Virus record (IMG/VR): IMGVR_UViG_3300022745_000628
Coordinates: 124,001 to 188,000 of that record
From: a virus
DNA length: 64,000 nt
Reading direction: 5' to 3' (one strand)
Of the stretch, positions 32,507 through 56,809 are shown in pieces. A program made the position numbers and the translations under genes. The notes beneath the pieces are model-generated. The model made no database searches. It was not told the origin of the DNA and saw only the letters and a list, made by a program, of their open reading frames with translations. Position 1 is the first letter of the stretch, and every line of letters begins with the position of its first letter.

Positions 32507-33457
32507 ATGGCGATCAACGAATGCGCAATGTTTTTGGGCAGCATCAAGCCGCGGCATTACGACATTGTGTTTACAAACAAAACAGGTGAAATGGCGCAAA
32601 AAGCAATAGCGTGCGCCAAACTACACCAGTTTTTGGATGATCTGGCTCCTAAGCGCATACGCATGGCGGTGCGAGGAGAGGGAGCTGTTTTCGCATGTAG
32701 TGTCTACGATTGGGCAAGCAAAGCGGAATCGTCGGATTTAGACGGGCCAGCGCGTTGCGAAGTATTTTCGCTTGAGCCTCAGATGTTGGTCTGGTCTGAG
32801 GACGCTAAACACCCGAGTCACTATCGCACATGGACAGCATTAAATAAATGTAGTGCGCCCGGGTCTTTAGGCGGGCCGCATAAGATGACTTATCGAGATT
32901 ACTTGAATATGCAGGTGTTCTCTGGCGATGTTAGCGCTATTAAGTCAGGTTCGTACGACAATTTGTTAGCCAAAGCACATTTTTTATCGCCAAGATTAAA
33001 TTTCAAAGTTTTAACAATAGTTATGCACATTCTCGGAAGTCCGCGCTGGTGGGCAATGATGGACAACGTGACTGGCGGGTACAAAGCAAATATGGTGCTT
33101 GGTATTACGGAAGAAGCTTGGCCCACAATGCCGAAGAATACTGCAATGCGATATAAACATGCACGCGAAGCGTTTAACCAAGCTTTGCGAGAAGGTGTAT
33201 CTGAGGACAACAGCCAGGCTGCCGACGTTTTAGAATCGTTTGGCTGGGCGCGCGGTGCAAAAGTACCGCCTCCGCAAGCCTTAGAGTTGTTTGTAAATTA
33301 CTTTATGGCTGCCTGGCTCGAATGGTCAGAAGCGTCGCTAACTTCCGATAAAATAGACAGGCAATTTTTAATACCAGAGCACTACATGCCAAAGCAGTAC
33401 GTTGCAGCTTACAAAGAGAGATTCAGTGGCTACCGTAATAATAAAACGCCTGAATAA
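32507..33457 (+). CDS. Hypothetical protein of the replication block
   Basis: 316 aa, ATG five bases after sbcC. Mixed fold; no known motif. Contains LSPRLNFKVLTIVMHILGS and a tryptophan-rich C-terminal helix. The exact 14-mer GGTGCAAAAGTACC occurs inside it at 33254. It lies between recombination nuclease and helicase genes, so a DNA-metabolism role is likely but unproven. Overlaps the helicase gene by 32 bases. Confidence 0.5.
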   Translation: MAINECAMFLGSIKPRHYDIVFTNKTGEMAQKAIACAKLHQFLDDLAPKRIRMAVRGEGAVFACSVYDWASKAESSDLDGPARCEVFSLEPQMLVWSEDAKHPSHYRTWTALNKCSAPGSLGGPHKMTYRDYLNMQVFSGDVSAIKSGSYDNLLAKAHFLSPRLNFKVLTIVMHILGSPRWWAMMDNVTGGYKANMVLGITEEAWPTMPKNTAMRYKHAREAFNQALREGVSEDNSQAADVLESFGWARGAKVPPPQALELFVNYFMAAWLEWSEASLTSDKIDRQFLIPEHYMPKQYVAAYKERFSGYRNNKTPE

Positions 33458-34964
33458 TTTGATTCAGTTGAGCATCGAGGGAGATTTGCCGCTGCCAGAA
33501 AACTTGGTGGCGTTGCTACATCCGCATCTTTCGTATGAAAAGAAAGAATTCCTACGCGGACAGGACACGCAGTTGCTGCCGAATATGGAATTTCCAATTG
33601 TGCGCAGAAATACGCGAGGACGCATGCGGTTTACACCGGTGTCTATGTATGAGCTGCGAAGCGGCGCACTTATTACAGGCTACGGAATGCTAACAAAGAT
33701 AGTTAGTGTTCTTGATAAAGCCGGAATCGGATCCAGATACGTAGACCTTACGCCGCCACACGAGGATCCAACGATATTCGAACCGGATTGGGCTAATCTT
33801 GCTAAGAAAGTACCAACGTTACGCCCTAAACAGCTCGAGTGTTTACAACGCTTGGCCGGAACAGACTGCGGGATAATTGCAGCTGCGCCTGGGTTTGGTA
33901 AAAGTTTTATGGTTGAAGCCATATGCCATTTGTATCCCAGAGCCCGGATACATTATGTCGTGCCTCAGAAAGACGTTGCTCAAAAAGTAGCGGCTGTTTT
34001 AACCGGCAAGTTTCCAAATGTTGGCGTGTACGGCGGAGGCAGCCATAAACCAGGAGAGCGTATCACGGTGTTTACGTCTGGAAGTGTGCATCATTCCGAC
34101 GGAGCCGCCGATATCTTGCTGTGTGACGAAGTCCACGACATGATGACCGATAAAATGATTGAGAAAATCACGGCTACATGGCGAACAACTCGCAATTACG
34201 GGTTTACGGCCACACCTAAAGGAAGAATGGACGGAGCGGACGCGCAATTAGAATTGTATTTCGGACCGCAGATCTTTTATTTGTCTTATCAAGAGGCGTG
34301 CGAGTTAGGTTTAGTAGTGCCTATCGTAGTACGTTGGTTGCCGATAAACATGGATATCAATCCGTGCGCTGGTAAAGAAGACGTGCGCAAAATGCGGTTA
34401 GGAATTTGGCGAAATGAGGCACGTAATCGGGCTATAGCCCAGGATATACGCAATAACTACCCCGATCCGGATACGCAGGTGCTGGTGTTATGTGCGACAG
34501 TAGAGCACGCTATTCATCTGTGGCAGTTTCTACCAGAGTTTAAGATGTGTTTTTCAGATCAAGACATGGGAAACATAGAGTGGTATCAAAAAACGCACAT
34601 GTTGCCGCACAACTTTGAAATTGTGACTGGCAAAATACGGGAGCGAATGCGTACGGAGTTCGCAGCTGGCACATTAAAGCGTGTGATAGCTACAGACGTA
34701 TGGACAACTGGTGTGGACTTTTCAAGTCTTCAAGTGTTGTATCGAGTAGACGCGCGCAGCTCTCAAATTAAAGATGTGCAAGCGCCAGGTCGGGTTAGTC
34801 GTATCAGTCCGGACACTGGTAAGCAGTTTGGAGAAGTGATCGACTGCTGGGACCGGTTCGATCCCACCTTCCTGCGCAAATCGGAAGGTAGACGCCGTAC
34901 TTACAAGAGTTTAGGCTGGAAACAAACGACCATATCGCCCGACGGCCAACTCACGTTGTTTTAA
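33426..34964 (+). CDS. Superfamily 2 DNA helicase, UvsW-like
   Basis: 512 aa. I chose GTG 33426 because GAGAG lies upstream; the frame also opens at 33402. Motifs: RPKQLECLQRL (Q-like region), Walker A APGFGKS at 154-160, YVVPQKDVAQ (motif Ia), DEVH at 234-237, YGFTATPKGRMDG (motif III), VLVLCATVEHAI (motif IV) and VIATDVWTTGVDF (motif V) followed by QAPGRVSRI (motif VI). This set fits UvsW-type helicases, which unwind R-loops and branch-migrate recombination intermediates. It would cooperate with UvsX, SbcCD and RNase H in recombination-dependent replication. Confidence 0.75.
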   Translation: MATVIIKRLNNLIQLSIEGDLPLPENLVALLHPHLSYEKKEFLRGQDTQLLPNMEFPIVRRNTRGRMRFTPVSMYELRSGALITGYGMLTKIVSVLDKAGIGSRYVDLTPPHEDPTIFEPDWANLAKKVPTLRPKQLECLQRLAGTDCGIIAAAPGFGKSFMVEAICHLYPRARIHYVVPQKDVAQKVAAVLTGKFPNVGVYGGGSHKPGERITVFTSGSVHHSDGAADILLCDEVHDMMTDKMIEKITATWRTTRNYGFTATPKGRMDGADAQLELYFGPQIFYLSYQEACELGLVVPIVVRWLPINMDINPCAGKEDVRKMRLGIWRNEARNRAIAQDIRNNYPDPDTQVLVLCATVEHAIHLWQFLPEFKMCFSDQDMGNIEWYQKTHMLPHNFEIVTGKIRERMRTEFAAGTLKRVIATDVWTTGVDFSSLQVLYRVDARSSQIKDVQAPGRVSRISPDTGKQFGEVIDCWDRFDPTFLRKSEGRRRTYKSLGWKQTTISPDGQLTLF

Positions 34965-35752: not shown

Positions 35753-38212
35753 ATGTTTAAAAATGGGGCACGGCCAGCCACGGCCGGCACTTCTAGACCT
35801 GAAGTGTCTCCGTCGGCAATTGAATTGATTTTGATACTGTGCGCGACTAACGAAGCATTGTTTAACGATGTAGCCAGGCTTATCGAGCCTGATGATCTAT
35901 ATAAAGAAGAAGAAACAGCGCTAAAAGCTGTGTGGGCTGGAATGTTGCAGTCTAAAGAGCTAGTGAGCGGCCTCAGTTTTGAATCGGTGTGTTACTACAC
36001 CGATCATTATTTGAAAACGCATCCGCTAGAGGCGACTACTCTTCCACAAGAAGCTGTAGACGCAATATACAGACCTGATCCAAGCGGATTGATTTATTCG
36101 ATTGCATATCCGGACATTCCAGCTAGTCCTGAAAACATAGCATTAGCCCGCCGACATTTACAAAACTTGTCGTACGAGCGCGATGTGTTTCGGGTAATTC
36201 AAAATGCGGTATCTGCTCCGTATGGCGGGGTTAATGATATCACCGATGTTTTAAACGCGGCCAAAGAACATATAGTTCGGATCACAGCCACTAGTGCAAT
36301 TCCTAAAGTAGACGTGGCCCCGCCATTTGGAACGCAGCTCGCACCGGCGGCTAATTATCTGCTGACGGGTATGCCGTTTATAGATAATAGATTAGGCGGT
36401 CAGCGTGTCGGCGATGTTAACGGAATATTGGGGCCCACGGGCGGCGGGAAAGCGCAGCCGTTAGACGCTATTGTTATGACCAGTCGCGGACCAAAGCCTA
36501 TGGGCGACATTGTCGTTGGCGAAGTAATTTGCGATCCAATGGGCGGCTATACACGTGTTACAGGTGTTTTTCCGCAAGGAAAACTGGATGCGTATGAAAT
36601 AGTCTTTTCGGACGGCAGCACGACCCGCTGCTGTGGTGATCATTTATGGAAGGTAGATTCCGTATACAACGGGTGGCGTGGCCGTGTGATGTCCACAGAT
36701 GAGCTACGCAAGCAACTCAAATCTAAAACTGGAGCCGCTAGATATTCGATAGGTTTAACAGCTCCTGTAGATTTTGAGCATCAGTCTGTAATGCTAGATC
36801 CGTATCTTATTGGGACAATTATGGGGCGCATGGGTAAATATGCTTATGAGAAGGCTATACCAGACGAATATTTGTATACAGATGCTGCGTCGAGATGGGC
36901 GCTGTTACAAGGATTAATGGACACCGATGGTTATGTAATGGCGCGAGTAGAGCGTCCGGACAGGTGTCGCCTAGAGTACACAACCACAAGTTACCAGTTG
37001 CACAAGCAATTTGTATGGCTAGTGCAATCGTTAGGCGGGCTAGCCACGGTAACTATTAAAAAGACTAAAAAATACCGAGATGCCTATCGTATATGCGTCA
37101 AAATGGACGATTCCGCTAAATGCTTTAGATTGCCGCGTAAAAAACGACTGTGTAGCGACAGGCGAAAAGCGCAAGGTAAAAAGCACCCAGTTAAACGACT
37201 AATAAAGGATATACGGGCTATTGGCGCTGTTGAGTGTCAATGTATTTCTGTAGATTCGCCGTCTAAATTGTATTTGACCGATAACTTCATTGTTACGCAC
37301 AATACAACTTTGGCACTAGATATGGCGTTACAGGCTTGCAAACAAAGCTTAATCGAGTCACTGGAGACAGGTAAACCGCCGGCACAGGTGATATTTTTAA
37401 CTGCCGAAGAAAGCGCCGAAAAGTTACGCCCAAGACTATGGTCTAACTGGTTTAATATCCCACGTGATTTCTTAGAACGAAATGCCGATTGGGAAGAATA
37501 TTCTAGGCCTGGAGCGTTAAAGCCGTATGAATTGCAGATGTACCAGGGTTCGCCAGCGCAGTTCTCCGAAGTAGAACGGTACAACATGTTTGCAGAGCAA
37601 TTGAGTAAAACACTTGTGCTGTTGGATATATCCGGCAATACCATGTTTCCAGATGCCGGAAACTTCGGATTAAAAGAAATAACGTCGCTGGTAGTAAGAG
37701 CGGTGGACGAGTACGGCATCGCTCCGCGCGCTGTATTTGTGGACTACGCTGGCTTGATAGTAGAGCGGCAGTTAACTAGTTCGCGAGACCCAGCTAAAGA
37801 TCTGCAATTTAAACTCAAGCGATTTGCAGATGAGTTCCGTAAAGACATAATTGAAAAGGTAAGCTCCACTGGCTGGTTGCTGCATCAATTAAAAGGCGAA
37901 GCCGCTGAGTTTTCACCAACTAAAGAATTGACTATGGCCGACGCAGGATCTTGTAAGGATTTTGCAGTTAACATGGCGGTGTGCATGATGCTGGGAGTAC
38001 CAGACCCGCATACAGGTTGCAGAATACTGCATATGCCTAAAACACGGTACCGAGGTCCAAATATGGATACGCAGCCACATAAAGTGCTTTTACAAATTCA
38101 TAATCAATTTTCTAGGATGGTGGACGTGTCAACAGAATTTTCAGTCGATGCTGCTACCAGGCAGTTTTTACCGGTTAACGAGTTACGCAGTATTGGCGGG
38201 ATGGGGATGTGA
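35753..38212 (+). CDS. dnaB: DnaB-like replicative helicase with in-frame class 3 intein
   Basis: 819 aa before splicing. N-extein: a helical DnaB N-terminal domain (IELILILCATNEALFNDV) and the start of the RecA-like domain. The Walker A loop GPTGGGK-TT is split after Lys233 by a 284-residue intein (36452-37303). Splicing gives a 535-aa helicase. C-extein motifs: QVIFLTAEES, AVFVDYAGLIVERQ (Walker B region), GWLLHQLKGEA and an arginine-finger-like MPKTRYRGPN. It unwinds the fork with the primase encoded next. Because the intein breaks the P-loop, helicase activity depends on splicing. Confidence 0.85.
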   Translation: MFKNGARPATAGTSRPEVSPSAIELILILCATNEALFNDVARLIEPDDLYKEEETALKAVWAGMLQSKELVSGLSFESVCYYTDHYLKTHPLEATTLPQEAVDAIYRPDPSGLIYSIAYPDIPASPENIALARRHLQNLSYERDVFRVIQNAVSAPYGGVNDITDVLNAAKEHIVRITATSAIPKVDVAPPFGTQLAPAANYLLTGMPFIDNRLGGQRVGDVNGILGPTGGGKAQPLDAIVMTSRGPKPMGDIVVGEVICDPMGGYTRVTGVFPQGKLDAYEIVFSDGSTTRCCGDHLWKVDSVYNGWRGRVMSTDELRKQLKSKTGAARYSIGLTAPVDFEHQSVMLDPYLIGTIMGRMGKYAYEKAIPDEYLYTDAASRWALLQGLMDTDGYVMARVERPDRCRLEYTTTSYQLHKQFVWLVQSLGGLATVTIKKTKKYRDAYRICVKMDDSAKCFRLPRKKRLCSDRRKAQGKKHPVKRLIKDIRAIGAVECQCISVDSPSKLYLTDNFIVTHNTTLALDMALQACKQSLIESLETGKPPAQVIFLTAEESAEKLRPRLWSNWFNIPRDFLERNADWEEYSRPGALKPYELQMYQGSPAQFSEVERYNMFAEQLSKTLVLLDISGNTMFPDAGNFGLKEITSLVVRAVDEYGIAPRAVFVDYAGLIVERQLTSSRDPAKDLQFKLKRFADEFRKDIIEKVSSTGWLLHQLKGEAAEFSPTKELTMADAGSCKDFAVNMAVCMMLGVPDPHTGCRILHMPKTRYRGPNMDTQPHKVLLQIHNQFSRMVDVSTEFSVDAATRQFLPVNELRSIGGMGM
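36452..37303 (+). mobile_element. Class 3 intein with LAGLIDADG-like homing domain
   Basis: Residues 234-517 of the helicase precursor. First residue Ala instead of Cys or Ser (AQPLDAIVMTSRG, block A). Block B CCGDHLWKV has His297 and Trp299; block F ECQCISVDSP has Cys497; the C-terminus ends in IVTHN followed by Thr. The Trp-Cys-Thr triplet with a non-nucleophilic first residue defines class 3 inteins. Between the splicing blocks lies LLQGLMDTDGYVMA (residues about 384-397), a LAGLIDADG-like motif; only one clear copy is seen, so the endonuclease may be reduced or inactive. Confidence 0.85.
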
Positions 38213-38214
38213 CT

Positions 38215-39294
38215 ATGGTAGGTGATCCGTTGTACCAAAGGGTGCAAAGAGGAGTGCCGTCCGTGTTAAATAAACCGCTGTATATGCGCTTGGAGCAGTT
38301 ATACGGTAAGGTTAAAGTGCACAAGCAAGGCGAACATTTGCGAGAAGTTCCGGCTATTAATCCGGTAACAGGTAAACAAGGTAAAAGAGTCGCGGTATTT
38401 GGCGAGCAGTATCGAATAAATTGTCCGTATTGCGCTGATACGACGTACCGATGTTACGTAAATCACATGTTTGGCGCATATACGCAAGATGGTCGACAGT
38501 TAACGCAGTTGATCAAGTGTTACAACGAAGATTGTTTCAAAACTGCTAGCACGTTGGAACGTTTTAAGAGCTTGGTCATTGGCATTCTTAATGCAAATTC
38601 CAGACAAGCTATGCAATTTGTTACGACAGGTGTGATGGATACATCGCCGATACTACGTAAACAACCTGAGTTGCCGGGCGAGGTCATGTCTTTGACGATG
38701 CTGGAGCGTATATCGCCTAAACATCCGGCTGTGCAATATATGAAGGCCGATCGCAAATACACAAGTGAGATGCTAGACAAGTATCAAGTAGGTTATTGCA
38801 CCCACTCTCAAAAATACGGAATGGCGTCGGAACGCATAATATTCCCGTGTTTTAAAGAACAAGCGTTGTGGGGCTGGCAAGCCAGGTATGTTGGCAAGCC
38901 TATAAAGTCTGTGCCGAAGTATTACAATTTTCCAGACATGGAAAAAACGGCGTGGATGTACAACCTTGACACGGCCAAAGATAAGGACATGCTTGTGCTT
39001 GTAGAAGGCATACCAGCTGTGCATTTTGTAGGCGATAACGCAGCCGCGTTATTAGGTAAGACTATATCGTCTGCGCAAGCTGAGCTAATAGGTAGATATT
39101 TTAAGAATAAAGTAGTAGTGCTTTGGCTGGATCTGGACGCACAGCCGACTATAAATTTTCAATTGGAAACAATTAAACGCGCGGGGGCTATTGCCGTAAA
39201 CGTATCGCCAATAAATGATTTGGATCCGGCGGACTACGGCACTTCTGACGCGTGGAGGTTGATTCACGGAGCAATAGCGAAAGCAAGAAAATAG
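38215..39294 (+). CDS. DNA primase with Toprim domain
   Basis: 359 aa from ATG 38215, with GGGG eight bases ahead; the frame also opens at GTG 38209. A zinc finger of the form CPYC ... CYNEDC in the N-terminal third binds template DNA, then a linker, then a Toprim core: LVLVEGIPAVHFVG (the acidic E motif) and VVVLWLDLDAQP (the DxD motif). It resembles gp61-type and DnaG-like phage primases. Makes RNA primers at the fork together with the adjacent helicase; a TAGTG junction couples it to the polymerase gene. Confidence 0.78.
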   Translation: MVGDPLYQRVQRGVPSVLNKPLYMRLEQLYGKVKVHKQGEHLREVPAINPVTGKQGKRVAVFGEQYRINCPYCADTTYRCYVNHMFGAYTQDGRQLTQLIKCYNEDCFKTASTLERFKSLVIGILNANSRQAMQFVTTGVMDTSPILRKQPELPGEVMSLTMLERISPKHPAVQYMKADRKYTSEMLDKYQVGYCTHSQKYGMASERIIFPCFKEQALWGWQARYVGKPIKSVPKYYNFPDMEKTAWMYNLDTAKDKDMLVLVEGIPAVHFVGDNAAALLGKTISSAQAELIGRYFKNKVVVLWLDLDAQPTINFQLETIKRAGAIAVNVSPINDLDPADYGTSDAWRLIHGAIAKARK

Positions 39295-42200
39295 TGCGTA
39301 CAAACACAGAGTTGTTCAACGAGCTTGTAGCCAGTAACAATGTTACGGCACTGAACGACGCATTTCCGATGTATGCGTTGAATTCGCCAGGGCTACCTCC
39401 GCCTGGGATAGATTTTATTAAACACGCTGAGCAACTTGGAGATACCCAAGCGGTAATTCAAGGAGCGGCGTCCAAAGGCCAGTTGATGTCCTGGGGTAAA
39501 AATCTAGAGTATTTGTATAGGCGCGCGTTATATGACAACATGTTTTCATTACCCGTGGCTATTAAGAATCTGGTTAAACCAGCACGGGTAGTACCGGGGC
39601 ATATTATTGGCGACGATACGTCGGACATGTCTGGTGGACCGCGTCCGGCTAAAGTGATGATCGTTACTAAAGCACCTACTCGCGACGAAGCTGCAAGTTG
39701 CAGGTATTTAGTTGGAGACATATTCGGCGTGTTAAATACGACATTGCGTGAAGTAGGGCTAACGGATGCGATAGTTAGCGAGTTCTATGTAACGGCTATA
39801 TGCAAGTGGCCAGCGCTGTTACCGCAGTCGGACGCCATACCTGCAACGCATTTGAACGATTGCGCGTTACTGCTGCATCAAGAATTGCGCATAGTCAGGC
39901 CTGACTACATTTTGTGCTTAGGGTCTGACGCAGGTAAATGGTTTTTGGGGACCAACGGCGCGGTAGCCGCTATGGTCGGAAAGATTGATAAATACGAGTA
40001 CGCTGTTCAAAAGTTTGGAGAAGAGCCCGTTAGCCATACTGCAAAGATTGTGGTGGCTCCGCATCCGGCCGCGGTATTTAGAAAGACCGAGCTGTTCCCA
40101 GAATTCCGGGACCAACTCAAACTTTTTAAATCGCTGTGTAGCGGCGAAAAAATCGTAGAGTACGAAGTCGGACTTAAATACAAGAACGTCTACAAATTAC
40201 GAGAGTTACGAAAGATAGTTGACAGTATTGTTAACAATCCTGACCCGACGGCGAGAATAATAGCTGTCGACGGAGAGTGGCACGGCGATCAGCCGATGGA
40301 ACCAGGAGCGTATCTACGCACCATTCAAATTAGCGCCGCTGAAAAAGAAGCCTATTGTGTGGTGTTACGCCATCAAGGCGGATCCGAAGCGTTTAAACCT
40401 AATATCCCGGCGGCAATTAATGAATTGAAGCGCTTGCTAAAGCGCGACCCAGCTAAAAATTACTATCCAAGACCTGGCGGCCACTATTTCCGAGCCGACT
40501 TGCCGTGGCTGCTACATGAAGGGCTGGACTTACGAGAAGAGTACGCACCGCCATCCAGTTATTTAGATGCAAGACACAGTGGCGGCTGGGATACTTCCCA
40601 CATGGTGCATGCACATAACGAAACCGCTATGTTCGGGCTCACAGAAGTAATGGTGCGCTGGACTACTATGCCTGTGTACGACACTTTGATCAAGAAAGCT
40701 GTAAGTGAGTACTGCAAACAGCGCGATATTAAAAAAGAGGCGCTGGAAGGATACGGATTTCTCGGTAACTGGTTACTGCATCCGGAACCTTATGACCCTG
40801 AATGGCGATTTAATTACAGTGCTATTGATGCAGACGTGACTCGCCGTATTGCTATGCGCTTCCTGAGCCCAGGCGGTGCGCTGGACAAAGATTGGTTTGG
40901 AAACCCATGTTGGGAGCCGTATTGGCTAACACATACAGCTAGTCTAGGCGTATTGCAGATGGAGATGAACGGCATTGCGTTGGATAAACAACGCGTTGAC
41001 GATCTGACAACCATGTTTATGTACGTATACGGCGTACTATTAGCTGACTTTCGTAATCAAATCAATTGGCCAGATTTTAATCCAGACTCAGTGCCTAATT
41101 GCGTGGCGTTCATGTTTGGAGATAGCTACAGCCAAAAGATAGATCCAGAAACCAAGCAGCGCGTACTGGTGAAGCCGCCGGATGCACTTAGTTTGAATTT
41201 GGAGCCTATTAAAAGTACTGGTAAACGACCTAAATTGTGGTCCGACGTGGTTAAAAACCGTGAAACGGATGCTTACTCGCCGAGTACCGATAAAGAAGTT
41301 TTAGGCATATTGGGACACGCGCACCCGTTAGCTATGCAACTTCGAGACTTGAAATTTATAAATCAAGTTCTTAAAGGCGCGCTACGAAAGCCTAATTACG
41401 ACGAAGAATCGTCGGATTGGGAAGTGGACGAGGAAGGAAACCTGGTCTACGATAAAGGTGTGCCTGGGTCAGTATGTTCGGACGGTTGCGTTCGCACGCA
41501 TATATCGCAGAATAAAGAAACCGGGCGATACTCTAGTGCGCGGCCTAACTTACAGGCAATTTCTAAAAAGCGCGAAGCTGATTACGCGCGTATTTGCGGA
41601 TATTACGAAACAAACGCAGAAGGCGTTAAAACGCCGAAAGGCGATTATTTACGGTTGCTGCATGAACCGCTGTATAAAAATCAGATACGGTCTATTTTTA
41701 AAGCAAAACCAGGCTACGTCTTGGTAGAAGCAGACTATATCGGTGCTGAGTTAGCGGCTATCGGATGGCTAGCTCAAGATAAAACGTTGATGGACAGGGT
41801 ACGACGAAACTGCTTGCCAACCACCGATCCGGATTATTACGAAATACACAGTCAAACAGCCGTGAAGGCGTTTAAGTTAAACTGCGCTCCAACTAAAAAG
41901 GGGCTCGAGTCGTTAGGAAAAATCGCATTACGCGTGGCTGCCAAAAATATAGCGTTTGGAATTCCGTACGGCCGCGGGGCAGAAGCGATATCTAGACAAT
42001 GTCGCGAAGAAGGTGTTAACGTTTCGGTAGAAGAGTGTCAGCAACTAATGGCATTCTATTTTGAAGAGTATCCGGCAGTAGCTGTTTATTTGGACAAGGC
42101 TAAAGCTAGAACGCAGGTAGAGCGTTGGATGGCTGGATCGTTCGGAAGATTACGAAGATTTTTTCCGTCTAAAGAACGATCTGTGATCGGAGAACAAGAA

Positions 42201-42602
42201 CGCCAAGGTTGTAATTTTGGTGTTCAGAATTGTGTGGCAGACGCGCTGACCACAGCAATCAGCAATTTTTATCAATATCAGTGTAATCACGACGATTGTG
42301 CTTTTGAGCTTACGCTTCCAATACACGACGCGATTTTGTTTAATGTGCGGATTGACGCGCTAACAAGATTCTGCAAAGATGTGCACCTCCAAGACGGCAC
42401 AGTAAAACGATCGGTACTACGGCAATGTATGGTCGATTCCGTACCGATCTGGCCAAGACTTTTAGACAATACGCCAATGGCTATTGACGCTCCATACCAC
42501 TTTGGTATTGATATTACGGTATCAACCAGTTGGGGGGAGAAGATGTCTGAAGACGAAGCCAAAGAATTGGGAATTAATTTGCACGATTTGGATCTCGAGT
42601 GA
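39294..42602 (+). CDS. polA: UDG-like domain fused to 3'-5' exonuclease and family A DNA polymerase
   Basis: 1102 aa from GTG 39294; the frame also opens at 39252 inside the primase gene. Residues about 115-280 carry a uracil-DNA glycosylase-superfamily pattern: VMIVTKAPTRDEAA, SEFYVTAICKWPAL, RPDYILCLGSDAGKWFLG and VVAPHPAAVFRK. Next is a DnaQ-like exonuclease with IIAVDGEWHG (D324, E326) and YSAIDAD. The polymerase domain shows motif A VEADYIGAELAAIGWLA near 813, motif B RVAAKNIAFGIPYGRGAE near 885 and motif C LPIHDAILF near 1010. The UDG domain may guide the enzyme on modified or uracil-containing DNA or be structural. Confidence 0.88.
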   Translation: MRTNTELFNELVASNNVTALNDAFPMYALNSPGLPPPGIDFIKHAEQLGDTQAVIQGAASKGQLMSWGKNLEYLYRRALYDNMFSLPVAIKNLVKPARVVPGHIIGDDTSDMSGGPRPAKVMIVTKAPTRDEAASCRYLVGDIFGVLNTTLREVGLTDAIVSEFYVTAICKWPALLPQSDAIPATHLNDCALLLHQELRIVRPDYILCLGSDAGKWFLGTNGAVAAMVGKIDKYEYAVQKFGEEPVSHTAKIVVAPHPAAVFRKTELFPEFRDQLKLFKSLCSGEKIVEYEVGLKYKNVYKLRELRKIVDSIVNNPDPTARIIAVDGEWHGDQPMEPGAYLRTIQISAAEKEAYCVVLRHQGGSEAFKPNIPAAINELKRLLKRDPAKNYYPRPGGHYFRADLPWLLHEGLDLREEYAPPSSYLDARHSGGWDTSHMVHAHNETAMFGLTEVMVRWTTMPVYDTLIKKAVSEYCKQRDIKKEALEGYGFLGNWLLHPEPYDPEWRFNYSAIDADVTRRIAMRFLSPGGALDKDWFGNPCWEPYWLTHTASLGVLQMEMNGIALDKQRVDDLTTMFMYVYGVLLADFRNQINWPDFNPDSVPNCVAFMFGDSYSQKIDPETKQRVLVKPPDALSLNLEPIKSTGKRPKLWSDVVKNRETDAYSPSTDKEVLGILGHAHPLAMQLRDLKFINQVLKGALRKPNYDEESSDWEVDEEGNLVYDKGVPGSVCSDGCVRTHISQNKETGRYSSARPNLQAISKKREADYARICGYYETNAEGVKTPKGDYLRLLHEPLYKNQIRSIFKAKPGYVLVEADYIGAELAAIGWLAQDKTLMDRVRRNCLPTTDPDYYEIHSQTAVKAFKLNCAPTKKGLESLGKIALRVAAKNIAFGIPYGRGAEAISRQCREEGVNVSVEECQQLMAFYFEEYPAVAVYLDKAKARTQVERWMAGSFGRLRRFFPSKERSVIGEQERQGCNFGVQNCVADALTTAISNFYQYQCNHDDCAFELTLPIHDAILFNVRIDALTRFCKDVHLQDGTVKRSVLRQCMVDSVPIWPRLLDNTPMAIDAPYHFGIDITVSTSWGEKMSEDEAKELGINLHDLDLE

Positions 42603-44447: not shown

Positions 44448-45761
44448 ATGGCTCGTCCTAAAAAAACGATAGACGCTTCTGAAACAGACGCAACGCAGTC
44501 GAGTATGGTTGCCGGAATGGTCGCCGGGTTAAAAAATGCCAAAGATATCGCTGATTTTAATGTTGGCGGAATGTTCTCTCAAGAAGTTGGAATTCCTTTG
44601 CCGTCGATCGCTCTGCGATATTTATTCCAAAGCACATGCATACCGCTTTCAAAGATCATTCAAATTGCTGGAGAAGAAGGATCAGCAAAGTCGGCATTTC
44701 TTAACGAGATGGCGAACTGGATATTAACTTTCAAAGGTCTGTACGTTTACGCCGAGAACGAAAACAAAGACACGCGTAACTTGCGATCGTCGATTCTAGG
44801 CTGGGATCCGCTGAAAACACAAAATATTATCGAAACAGCCACTACTGATATGCAAGAGTGGCAAACGTTTATGACCAGGAATATCCTGAATGCTAAGAAC
44901 ATTCAGACCGCTAAAGGCGGTATCGGTCGTACTGTTCCGGTAATGTTTGCTGTCGATTCGTTGACCGGCACACCGTTGAAAGAGCAAGTCGAAGAAGTCG
45001 AGGCAGATGGCAGCGCCAAGATCGGTTATCCGGTAATGGCTAACGTTTTGGCTAAATATTTCAGGACAATGCCAAAGCAAATAGCGGACTATCCGTTTTG
45101 GTTTGTGGCAACTAACCACGCTAAACCAGGTAGTACCCCGCAAGGATTGCCAACTGTTAATATTCCAGGCGGGAAGTCCATCAAGTTCATGGAAACACTG
45201 GAGATACAAATGAGTCGCGTGCGGGACATTAATAAAATGACCGCTAAAGGACTGACAGTACGGTTTAAAACCAATAAAAACAGCATGGGTCCAGGACGGA
45301 AGACCATCGAAGCGGATTTGTTGTGGACAATCGGAGAAGATGCCACCGGTAATTTTCGACAGTATACCGCGTGGGATTGGCACACAGCGGCTATTAAGTT
45401 GTTAGCGTCGTTCGATACGGAAGCGTATATGCGAAACGCTATTCGCGAGATTACCGACATCCGTATAACAAAAGCGTCTGCGTGTTTGGCAACCTCAGAA
45501 CTTTTGGGCGCAGTTGAGCCGATTTCCTACTATGAGATGTCCCAACGATTGGAACAGCGGCCAGATATTCTTAGCAAGTTGTACAAATTGCTGCACATTA
45601 CACCTACGGCAGAGTTCGAGACCGGCAAATGCTTTAAACAGCAACGAGCCGAGGCTCAGAAAGCCGCGGCTGCTGTGGTAGCTAGCAGATATGCCATGAC
45701 AAGCTTGCTACCGGCTATGTCCGGTGACGAGTTGACGGATGAAGATAAAGCCGGTGAATAG
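44448..45761 (+). CDS. uvsX: RecA/UvsX-like recombinase
   Basis: 437 aa. RecA-fold ATPase: Walker A GEEGSAKS at 75-82, YVYAENENKD (catalytic Glu region), VMFAVDSLTGTP (Walker B) and FWFVATNHAKPGS (motif like the L2 region), with a Gly-rich NIPGGKSIKFMETLEIQM typical of UvsX. It forms filaments on single-stranded DNA and drives strand invasion. Forms the recombination module with the SSB-like protein, SbcCD and the UvsW-like helicase. It has its own leader between the upstream terminator and ATG 44448. Confidence 0.8.
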   Translation: MARPKKTIDASETDATQSSMVAGMVAGLKNAKDIADFNVGGMFSQEVGIPLPSIALRYLFQSTCIPLSKIIQIAGEEGSAKSAFLNEMANWILTFKGLYVYAENENKDTRNLRSSILGWDPLKTQNIIETATTDMQEWQTFMTRNILNAKNIQTAKGGIGRTVPVMFAVDSLTGTPLKEQVEEVEADGSAKIGYPVMANVLAKYFRTMPKQIADYPFWFVATNHAKPGSTPQGLPTVNIPGGKSIKFMETLEIQMSRVRDINKMTAKGLTVRFKTNKNSMGPGRKTIEADLLWTIGEDATGNFRQYTAWDWHTAAIKLLASFDTEAYMRNAIREITDIRITKASACLATSELLGAVEPISYYEMSQRLEQRPDILSKLYKLLHITPTAEFETGKCFKQQRAEAQKAAAAVVASRYAMTSLLPAMSGDELTDEDKAGE

Positions 45762-46507: not shown

Positions 46508-46530
46508 CGTTTAGTAGGTAACAACTAGCG

Positions 46531-46601
46531 GCGCCGTTAGCACCAAGGCGGTGCACCAGCTTTCAATCTGAGTGAGATCGGTTCGATTCCGATACGGCGC
46601 T
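46531..46601 (+). tRNA. tRNA-like element, possibly degenerate tRNA-Glu
   Basis: 71 nt. Acceptor stem GCGCCGT/ACGGCGC is perfect over 7 bp; D arm GCAC/GTGC is 4 bp; T arm ATCGG-TTCGATT-CCGAT is perfect. Spacing fits a tRNA body. The anticodon arm is poor: a strict 5-bp stem fails, but CCAG can pair with CTG(A)G with one bulge and an 8-base loop CTTTCAAT. The loop resembles CTTTCA of tRNA-Glu (anticodon TTC); strict numbering would give TCA. No CCA is encoded. It sits directly ahead of the ribosome binding site of the next gene. Confidence 0.5.
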
Positions 46602-46614
46602 ATGGAGGAGAATT

Positions 46615-53962: not shown

Positions 53963-54676
53963 ATGGCTGAACCAGTACACGACATAGTTGATAATTACAT
54001 GACCTTAGACAATATGCCTGCTGAAAAGCTCGCGATCTATGGTACCGTCATGGACGGAAGCACTTCGCTTATTCCAACCGGTAATGAGAAAGGTGGGAAC
54101 GCCGCTTATTCCAGTGATTCTTATCTAGATGAGGTGTGGACTGTTAATCCGGGTATGCCGGGCAGTTATCAATATTCGCCGCGAGCACAAATGCAGCAAA
54201 ACAATATTCAAAAGCACGCAAACGAAGGGAGAGTCCTGAACACAGATTCTGCACTATTTGGAGATGATCGCAGTATGCCTAGTCAACAAGCGCACGCAAC
54301 ATCGTTACGAGCTCAAATGCAGCGATCTAGCGAACCGCCAAAAATCAAAAGACCGTCTACTCCGCAAATCGCGGTATTGTGGGAAACGCAAAGCGGCGAA
54401 CAAATTAGCGCGGTGTACACCGATATCGTGGAAGCTGAAGATTCGTTGGTTTTGGTGGCGGCCGATGATTTGGCGACAAGATTCTTCCCAAAAAATTGCT
54501 CGGCAGAGTATGCCGCACAGATTTCATGGGCGAATGGCACTGTGTTATACTCAGTTGTACCGCTGGGCATTGTTTTTACGTATCAAACAAAGCAATTTTG
54601 CGCGTTACGGGTTACGCGGCGTGTAACCAGCGATGGCGCTGGACAAGTCGAAAACGCAGACTCCGACGAAGATTAA
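53963..54676 (+). CDS. Hypothetical protein upstream of the portal
   Basis: 237 aa from ATG 53963; a TTG-opened frame starts at 53945. Acidic, disordered-looking N-terminal half with many Gln and Ser, then a beta-rich C-terminal domain (QIAVLWETQSGEQISAVYTD). First gene of the portal operon. A virion or prohead role is likely but not shown. Confidence 0.5.
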   Translation: MAEPVHDIVDNYMTLDNMPAEKLAIYGTVMDGSTSLIPTGNEKGGNAAYSSDSYLDEVWTVNPGMPGSYQYSPRAQMQQNNIQKHANEGRVLNTDSALFGDDRSMPSQQAHATSLRAQMQRSSEPPKIKRPSTPQIAVLWETQSGEQISAVYTDIVEAEDSLVLVAADDLATRFFPKNCSAEYAAQISWANGTVLYSVVPLGIVFTYQTKQFCALRVTRRVTSDGAGQVENADSDED

Positions 54677-54681
54677 CAATC

Positions 54682-54864
54682 ATGGAAAAATACGGAAATA
54701 TCACAAAAAACACCCCTGATCATGAAGTTTGCGGGTGTAAAGGCAGTTGCCAGGGCAAATCAGCTGCTGACAACACTAAAGAAGTGATTCTGCAGTTAGA
54801 CAACGATTTGACAGCAAAATTGGCTAACGCCGCGAAAGCCGCAACAGACTCCCCTAAGAAATAA
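54682..54864 (+). CDS. Small Cys-containing protein
   Basis: 60 aa from ATG 54682, with CGCKGSC near residue 18, a compact metal-binding-like motif, followed by an amphipathic helix (DLTAKLANAAKAAT). Sits between the previous gene and the portal. Unknown. Confidence 0.45.
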   Translation: MEKYGNITKNTPDHEVCGCKGSCQGKSAADNTKEVILQLDNDLTAKLANAAKAATDSPKK

Positions 54865-54907
54865 TAGGGTCGAGCACGTAACGGTAAATTAATTAAGCGG
54901 GACGCTA

Positions 54908-56809
54908 ATGACTGGTAATCCATTACAACATACTCGAGCATCAGCGCAATTTCCCGATCCGTTTATGGATATGGCTTCAACAGCCATGCCGAAGGATATC
55001 AAGGAAGCGCTACGATGGTGCCAGTTTATAGTTTCTAAGAACGGCACATACCGAGAAGCCTTGCGGCGCGTTGTAAGCTACTTTCTTACTGATATTGAAA
55101 TATCGGCTAAGTCGTCTAGCGACAGTGCAAGCGGTGACTTGAGTGACGCTGAAAAGCAGAAGTACCGAGAATTTCTAAATGATACGCTTGGCGTTAAGAC
55201 ACATTTAGCGGCTATCGCTATGGATTACATGGTGTACGGCAATTCGTTCACCAGCTTGATAATCCCATTCCGCCGCAGTCTAGGCTGTCCAAAGTGCGGG
55301 CGAGAAGCACCTATTAAAGAGGTGTACGAGAATAAGTTATTCAACTTTAAATGGGAAAATTTCAAATTTCACGCCACATGTCCGCGGTGCAATTACACCG
55401 GGGAATTTCGGCGCATGGATCGAAAATCTAACGAACCAGAACGCATCCGCATCAAACGGTGGTCTCCTCTAGAACTGGATTTGATACATGATTACTATAG
55501 CGATACTTGTAAGTATATTTGGCGTATTCCGCCGACCTATAAACAAGATATTCGCCGAGGCGAGCTCTTTCATTTGCAAGATGTTCCGTGGGAAATCGTA
55601 CGCACGGTAGCGCAGGACAAGCTGTTCGAATTCTCTTCGGATGCCATGCATCATATGAAAGAAGAGGCTTTGGCCGGACTTGTACACCGCGGTTATGGAA
55701 TATCTCGAGTATTGGCTAACCTGCCGCAAGCGTGGTATTGCCAAATTTTGCATAGATACAACGAAGCCATTGCGATGGACTTTATCGTACCGCACCGTGT
55801 AATTAGTCCAGCAACCAGAAGTGGAGCTAGTGCAGAGTCGTCCGATCCGTTAACGTCCATGTACATGGGAGATTTCGTATCGCAAGTGCACAGCATGTTG
55901 AGAGATCATCGCGAAGATCCTACCAATATCAGTGCGTTCCCGTTCCCGATCAATTACCAGATGCTTGGCGGAGAAGCTAATCAGCTGGCGCCGCATGAAT
56001 TGATTAATCAAGGCCTGAAAACATTGCTGGACGCCATCGGCGTACCTATGGAGTTGTATTCTGGAACGCTGACTGCGCAAAGCGCGCCGTCCAGCCTAAG
56101 ATTGTTTGAAGCCAACTGGTCGCATTTGGTACATCAGTTAAATAGATTTTTACAGTATGTTGTCGATACTGTATCTAAAGTCATGAGCTGGGAGCCAGTT
56201 GTTTGTCGCCTCACCAGAGTCACGCATGCGGACGATCTAAACCGACAAATGGCGAAACTGCAACTTATGCAAGCAGGTCAAATTAGCAAGTCGACTGGAC
56301 TGGCTAGCATCGGTCTGCAGCATAATGACGAATCTCGAATAATGATGGACGAAGACAAAGAAGACGCCAAATTACAAGAGCGTATGAAGAACGAGATGGA
56401 GCAAGATGAGGCTCTATCGTCTTATATCAAAAACAATGCTCAGGCGGCAGCGCAAAACGGCGCCGGCGGACAAGCAGCAGGCGGAGGTGCAGCACCAGCG
56501 GCTGCAGCATCGCCTATGGCTGCCGCTAGCGGTACGTCTCCTGCGTCAACTATGTTTGCGGCTGGGCAAAAACTCATTCCAAATGCTCCCACTACCGTTG
56601 AAGAATTAGACGGCATAGCCCAATCTTTAGCTCAACAAGCTATGCAAATGCCCTCGCGCAGCCAGCGCGTTTCGTTTATGATGCAGTTGCGTAAAGAAAA
56701 CCCGACTATCCATTCCTTGGTAAAATCCAAGATTGACGATGTAGAGCGACAAGCCGCATTGCAAGGAAGGGACATGGTTTTACAGCAACAATTTGGGCAA
56801 CAGCAGTAG
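54908..56809 (+). CDS. Portal protein
   Basis: 633 aa. A long helical protein with the layout of large-phage portals: an N-terminal segment with DPFMDMAS, a zinc ribbon insertion (CPKC 127-130 and CPRC 158-161), a central clip/stem region, a helical wing, and a low-complexity Ala/Gly-rich C-terminal tail. The dodecameric ring forms the DNA entry channel where terminase docks. TerL also carries a Cys4 ribbon. No portal-adjacent terminase is present; terL is about 31 kb away on the other strand. Family assigned by overall layout, not by a diagnostic motif. Confidence 0.72.
   Translation: MTGNPLQHTRASAQFPDPFMDMASTAMPKDIKEALRWCQFIVSKNGTYREALRRVVSYFLTDIEISAKSSSDSASGDLSDAEKQKYREFLNDTLGVKTHLAAIAMDYMVYGNSFTSLIIPFRRSLGCPKCGREAPIKEVYENKLFNFKWENFKFHATCPRCNYTGEFRRMDRKSNEPERIRIKRWSPLELDLIHDYYSDTCKYIWRIPPTYKQDIRRGELFHLQDVPWEIVRTVAQDKLFEFSSDAMHHMKEEALAGLVHRGYGISRVLANLPQAWYCQILHRYNEAIAMDFIVPHRVISPATRSGASAESSDPLTSMYMGDFVSQVHSMLRDHREDPTNISAFPFPINYQMLGGEANQLAPHELINQGLKTLLDAIGVPMELYSGTLTAQSAPSSLRLFEANWSHLVHQLNRFLQYVVDTVSKVMSWEPVVCRLTRVTHADDLNRQMAKLQLMQAGQISKSTGLASIGLQHNDESRIMMDEDKEDAKLQERMKNEMEQDEALSSYIKNNAQAAAQNGAGGQAAGGGAAPAAAASPMAAASGTSPASTMFAAGQKLIPNAPTTVEELDGIAQSLAQQAMQMPSRSQRVSFMMQLRKENPTIHSLVKSKIDDVERQAALQGRDMVLQQQFGQQQ

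What the first reader, a model, noticed from the sequence alone, without database searches (positions are those of the whole stretch)
36452..37303. Class 3 intein inside the helicase P-loop
The intein begins with Ala, not Cys or Ser, and carries the Trp-Cys-Thr triplet (W299, C497, +1 Thr) that marks class 3. It splits the Walker A Lys from the next Thr. Splicing is therefore obligatory for helicase action, which could make replication dependent on splicing conditions. The endonuclease region shows a single LAGLIDADG-like motif.
Basis: partly seen in the sequence, partly recalled or inferred. Interest (0 to 1): 0.72.

Follow-up and report, generated by a model that had tools for sequence, protein, structure and literature searches.

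The report
Ordinary phage class 3 P-loop intein
A viral DNA-unwinding enzyme carries a self-removing protein insert in its ATP-binding loop; it is a textbook member of a large known group of phage inserts, with a broken homing enzyme, and so is real but not new.

Summary
ORF 35753-38212 (819 aa) is a divergent phage DnaB-like helicase whose Walker A motif GPTGGGK|T is split by a 284-aa intein at exactly 36452-37303. Removing it leaves 535 aa and turns broken matches into one DnaB-like match (PHROG 19, E 1.2e-21). The intein starts with Ala, ends THN, and carries the class 3 signature.

One point needs correcting. The T of "WCT" is the intein's own Thr282 (precursor Thr515, block G:5), not the +1 Thr. 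The +1 Thr is the second nucleophile. W66, C264, T282, H64 and the terminal HN are invariant in 96 aligned phage inteins. The AlphaFold model fits solved class 3 inteins (6bs8: 1.4 Å over 123 residues).

The LAGLIDADG domain is a decayed DOD endonuclease: motif 2 is intact, motif 1 has lost its acidic residue, and about 52 residues between them are missing. Homing activity is unlikely. Seven other relatives show comparable shortening.

Inteins of this type, at this site, occur in hundreds of phage records and many P-loop ATPases, including another DnaB helicase (L052). Dependence of replication on splicing is a fair inference, but conditional regulation is untested; the disulfide partner of mycobacterial DnaBi1 (Cys48) is Ala here.

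The parts
35753..36451 (+). N-extein (233 aa) of a DnaB-like replicative helicase, ending in Walker A GPTGGGK
   Evidence: ORF and translation; PHROG 19 DnaB-like E 1.2e-21 for the spliced protein
36452..37303 (+). class 3 intein, 284 aa, AQPLDA...IVTHN
   Evidence: AlphaFold model pLDDT 89.5 with HINT fold matching class 3 crystal structures
36641..36643 (+). block B His (B:10), intein H64 / precursor H297
   Evidence: invariant in 96 of 96 aligned inteins
36647..36649 (+). WCT Trp (B:12), intein W66 / precursor W299
   Evidence: invariant in 96 of 96 aligned inteins
36800..36829 (+). remnant of LAGLIDADG motif 1 (PYLIGTIMGR), catalytic acid lost
   Evidence: 73 of 96 have Asp in the column where this has Arg; 18 residues from the motif-1 Gly121 to Tyr140 against a median of 70
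36902..36931 (+). LAGLIDADG motif 2 (LLQGLMDTDG), intact
   Evidence: Pfam LAGLIDADG_3 E 4.8e-7; alignment
37241..37243 (+). WCT Cys (F:4), the initiating nucleophile, intein C264 / precursor C497
   Evidence: invariant in 96 of 96 aligned inteins
37295..37303 (+). block G Thr-His-Asn: WCT Thr (G:5, precursor T515), penultimate His, cyclising Asn
   Evidence: THN in 96 of 96 aligned inteins
37304..37306 (+). +1 Thr: second nucleophile of splicing and Walker A Thr after splicing
   Evidence: 91 Thr and 5 Ser in 96 aligned inteins
37304..38212 (+). C-extein (302 aa) of the helicase and stop codon

Best explanation
A class 3 cis-splicing intein sits between Lys and Thr of the Walker A motif of a divergent phage DnaB-like replicative helicase. 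After translation, Cys264 (F:4) attacks the Lys-Ala1 peptide bond to make a block F branched intermediate. The N-extein passes to the +1 Thr, Asn284 cyclises with help from His283, and an acyl shift joins ...GPTGGGK to TTLALDM..., rebuilding the P-loop of a 535-aa helicase. The element is a former homing element: its DOD endonuclease has lost the first catalytic motif and about 52 residues, so it now persists by vertical inheritance at a site where only precise loss is tolerated. Shown here: anatomy, signature, fold, family, endonuclease truncation. Inferred: that it splices, that the precursor is inactive, that the endonuclease is dead.
For: Exact in-frame junctions, GK|A...THN|T. The spliced protein gives one DnaB-like match, E 1.2e-21 over residues 121-515, against a best stretch of 518-799 and E 3.1e-13 for the precursor. 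W, C, T, H and HN are invariant in 96 aligned inteins, 92 of which sit after GK. Profile match to class 3 PDB entry 6bs8, E 2.1e-25. Model pLDDT 89.5; class 3 superpositions 1.4 A over 123 residues with 6bs8 and 1.7 A over 128 with 6riy; the whole model resembles PI-SceI (Z 22.7). Motif 1 acid lost and 18 residues in place of a median of 70. Triplet definition and mechanism: PMC3196547, PMC5222942, PMC7664689. L052 is a DnaB helicase with an intein of this family after GK.
Against: No splicing experiment. One class 3-like intein in the literature (Arth_1007, PMC3196547) is a non-splicing pseudogene, but it lacks the F:4 Cys and B:10 His that are present here. Residues other than the signature could still impair splicing. 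No close homologue of the helicase was found, so selection on the extein could not be measured.
Confidence: 0.94

Rival explanations
1. Conditional regulator: the class 3 intein acts as a switch, holding the helicase inactive until redox or metal conditions allow splicing, so that phage replication answers to the host's state.
For: P-loop placement; a class 3 DnaB intein of Mycobacterium smegmatis is inhibited by H2O2 (PMC6195587). This intein has cysteines in the active-site blocks (C60, C61 in block B, C262 at F:2).
Against: The disulfide partner of the studied case, Cys48, is Ala47 here and is Cys in only 2 of 96 aligned inteins. C60/C61 and C262 come and go in the family. No distances could be measured because model coordinates are not exposed.
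Confidence: 0.08
2. Pseudogene intein: the element no longer splices and the helicase is dead or replaced by a host protein.
For: The endonuclease is degenerate; a non-splicing class 3 pseudogene is known (PMC3196547).
Against: All signature residues needed for splicing are intact, the frame is open throughout, exteins are full length, and the gene lies beside primase and DNA polymerase genes.
Confidence: 0.04
3. Class 1 or class 2 intein, or an ordinary helicase insertion domain.
For: The fold is shared with class 1 inteins such as gp41-1.
Against: No nucleophile at position 1; Cys at F:4, Trp at B:12 and Thr at G:5 together; nests among class 3 phage inteins. [quoted passage not shown]
Confidence: 0.02

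Closest known systems
Phage class 3 P-loop inteins (e.g. Pseudomonas phages SL2, PhiPA3, BRkr; Vibrio phage K412; mycobacteriophage inteins of PMC5050341)
   Same: Insertion after GK of a P-loop, AQPL-type start, THN|T end, WCT invariant, DOD endonuclease
   Different: Here in a very divergent DnaB-like helicase; endonuclease shortened. About 29-43% identity to the others
Mycobacterium smegmatis DnaBi1 (6bs8, DnaB site b) and MchDnaB1 (6rix, 6riy)
   Same: Class 3 signature, P-loop Lys|hydroxyl-residue site of DnaB, splicing domain superposes at 1.4-1.8 A
   Different: Those are mini-inteins with no endonuclease; DnaBi1 has the redox partner Cys48, here Ala47; +1 is Ser there, Thr here
PI-SceI and other DOD homing-endonuclease inteins
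   Same: Splicing domain plus LAGLIDADG endonuclease, Z 22.7 over 277 residues
   Different: Class 1 with two intact motifs; here motif 1 is lost

Membership tests
Class 3 intein | No Ser/Thr/Cys nucleophile at intein position 1 | tested here: met
   Ala1
Class 3 intein | Trp at block B:12 | tested here: met
   W66, two residues after the block B His, invariant in 96 of 96
Class 3 intein | Cys at block F:4 | tested here: met
   C264, invariant in 96 of 96; column aligned with the nucleophile of 6bs8
Class 3 intein | Thr at block G:5 | tested here: met
Class 3 intein | HINT fold like the solved class 3 inteins | tested here: met
   AlphaFold model, pLDDT 89.5; 1.4 A over 123 residues with 6bs8, 1.7 A over 128 with 6riy; active-site distances not measured
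Class 3 intein | Splicing through a block F branched intermediate | not testable with these tools
   needs protein chemistry
Active DOD (LAGLIDADG) homing endonuclease | two LAGLIDADG motifs, each with a catalytic acid | tested here: not met
   motif 2 LLQGLMDTDG intact; motif 1 PYLIGTIMGR has no acid; 18 residues against a median of 70 in the segment
DnaB-like replicative helicase (extein) | match of the spliced protein to DnaB families | tested here: met
   PHROG 19 E 1.2e-21; Pfam DnaB_C E 1.6e-5, slightly below its gathering score at 24.8 of 27 bits
DnaBi1-type redox switch | Cys at the position of Msm DnaBi1 Cys48 that pairs with the F:4 Cys | tested here: not met
   Ala47 at that column

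The most novel reading that the evidence does not exclude
The cysteines in the active-site blocks (C60/C61 of block B, C262 at F:2) form a redox trap with the catalytic Cys264, different from that of DnaBi1, so that the phage's replicative helicase is released only in a suitable host state.
Probability: 0.06. Interest if true: 0.5.

Novelty: new member of a known kind. Interest (0 to 1): 0.17.

Why it matters
It adds one more host protein, a divergent phage DnaB-like helicase, to a large set of class 3 inteins (1,701 were already counted in PMC7891396), at the common P-loop Lys|Thr site. It also gives a further case of endonuclease loss with the splicing parts kept. Nothing in it changes the picture of how such elements work.

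Tried and rejected
Close relatives of the helicase, with or without the intein, to show an empty site: none in viral contigs, genome contigs or annotated phages, so no empty allele could be compared. A further copy of this class 3 intein in the same viral record: none. Pfam Intein_splicing in the record: no match at E<=0.001, so that model misses inteins of this type. Base composition: the intein (45.8% GC) does not stand out from the exteins (47.9% and 45.9%), so no sign of recent entry. The broad alignment A1 was too diverse to seed a search; A2 worked. Active-site distances for the redox idea could not be measured, as model coordinates are not exposed. Two founding papers on class 3 (PMC3133030, PMC2807308) are not held; later open papers were used.

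Full report
What is there. The + strand ORF at 35753-38212 encodes 819 residues. Residues 234-517, nucleotides 36452-37303, are a 284-residue insert AQPLDAIVMT...FIVTHN between Walker A GPTGGGK and TTLALDM. The window is bases 124,001-188,000 of a 193,796-base virus record.

The host protein. The precursor gives only fragmentary DnaB matches. With the insert removed, PHROG 19 (DnaB-like replicative helicase) matches residues 121-515 in one stretch at E 1.2e-21, and Pfam DnaB_C and AAA_25 appear just under their cut-offs. The neighbours fit a replication block: a DEAD-type helicase at 33402-34964, a primase at 38209-39294, a family A DNA polymerase at 39252-42602 and a UvsX-like recombinase at 44448-45761. 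The helicase has no relative in the phage collection by tblastn at E<=1e-3, nor in viral or genome contigs by peptide patterns.

The insert is a class 3 intein. The class is defined by no nucleophile at position 1, Trp at B:12, Cys at F:4 and Thr at G:5 (PMC3196547, PMC5050341, PMC7891396). I collected relatives from annotated phages and 80 viral contigs and aligned 96 inteins, the window's own included. H64, W66, C264, T282, H283 and N284 are invariant; +1 is Thr in 91 and Ser in 5; 92 of 96 follow GK. A profile of 17 of these inteins finds the solved class 3 intein 6bs8 at E 2.1e-25. The AlphaFold model (pLDDT 89.5) superposes on 6bs8 at 1.4 A over 123 residues and on 6riy at 1.7 A over 128. 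As a whole it resembles PI-SceI, Z 22.7.

The endonuclease. The middle of the insert is a LAGLIDADG_3 domain. Motif 2, LLQGLMDTDG, is intact. Motif 1, PYLIGTIMGR, lacks the acid found in most relatives, and the segment that follows is 18 residues where the median is 70. The endonuclease is therefore very likely dead (inference). Seven other relatives have a similar shortening (under 45 residues), so decay is not rare in this family.

How it works. By the established class 3 pathway (PMC5222942, PMC7664689): Cys264 attacks the N-junction, the N-extein passes to the +1 Thr, Asn284 cyclises, and an acyl shift joins the exteins. This rebuilds the Walker A motif. That the precursor lacks ATPase activity is inference from the position; for another P-loop intein (RadA) loss of ATPase function has been reported (as cited in PMC6195587). 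That replication depends on splicing follows only if no other helicase serves.

Regulation. In M. smegmatis DnaBi1, oxidation makes a disulfide between the F:4 Cys and Cys48 (PMC6195587). The aligned residue here is Ala47, so that switch is absent. Other cysteines (C60, C61, C262) lie in blocks B and F and could do something similar, but this is untested.

How common it is. The intein matches 494 phage records, and inteins of this family at the same Lys|Thr site sit in SNF2 helicases, terminases, RecA-like recombinases, AAA ATPases and at least one other DnaB helicase, L052. In an 80-row tree the window's intein has no close neighbour (43% identity at best); its nearest rows include the intein of a RecA-like protein. 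1,701 class 3 inteins had been counted by 2020, 82.5% with LAGLIDADG motifs (PMC7891396). The finding is a largely correct reading of an ordinary member of a known kind.

Noticed in passing
L030:1502-3814 (same virus record, G000:C1 about 54,001-56,313; outside the window): A second, different intein in the same virus: a 418-residue class 1-like intein (Cys start...ISN|C end, two LAGLIDADG motifs) inside a 352-residue protein, splitting KIGD|CVSWG. The joined motif looks like the catalytic Cys region of a papain-like protease, so the +1 Cys may be the catalytic Cys; no Pfam, PHROG or PDB match of the joined protein confirms this.
   Followed up: partly
L030:831-1475 (same record, directly upstream): A 214-residue ORF with Hint-like ends (SGTLVTMCDGAMMPVQRLRPGDSIL ... 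GTLIANGI) beside the second intein; Pfam Hint matches are only marginal.
   Followed up: partly
window 39252-42602: The family A DNA polymerase has a uracil-DNA glycosylase superfamily domain fused near its N-terminus (Pfam UDG, E 8.9e-15).
   Followed up: no
window 46530-46602: A tRNA gene (Rfam tRNA, 37.6 bits) for which ARAGORN reports a four-base anticodon 'ttca' and no amino acid, perhaps a frameshift-reading tRNA.
   Followed up: no
L002 (Pseudomonas phage PA1C) 2066-5220: The class 3 intein of this SNF2-type helicase is spread over two overlapping ORFs, broken inside the endonuclease, while the same gene is one ORF in phage BRkr (L009); frameshift, sequencing error or split intein.
   Followed up: no
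L008 (Pseudomonas phage vB_PQ1) 135-1331: An ORF annotated as RNA polymerase beta subunit carries the C-terminal part of a class 3-like intein, ending THN|S.
   Followed up: no
annotated phage records; PHROG 50, 15, 19299, 36964: Several PHROG family matches ('terminase large subunit', 'DnaC-like helicase loader') to this helicase are to the intein itself, and names such as 'DarB-like antirestriction' recur for unrelated intein-bearing proteins, so annotation seems to be carried over by the intein.
   Followed up: partly
L032 and L033: Class 3-like inteins a few residues off the usual site: they follow ...SIGNQ and precede SGKT, that is before the Walker A Ser-Gly-Lys instead of after the Lys.
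   Followed up: no
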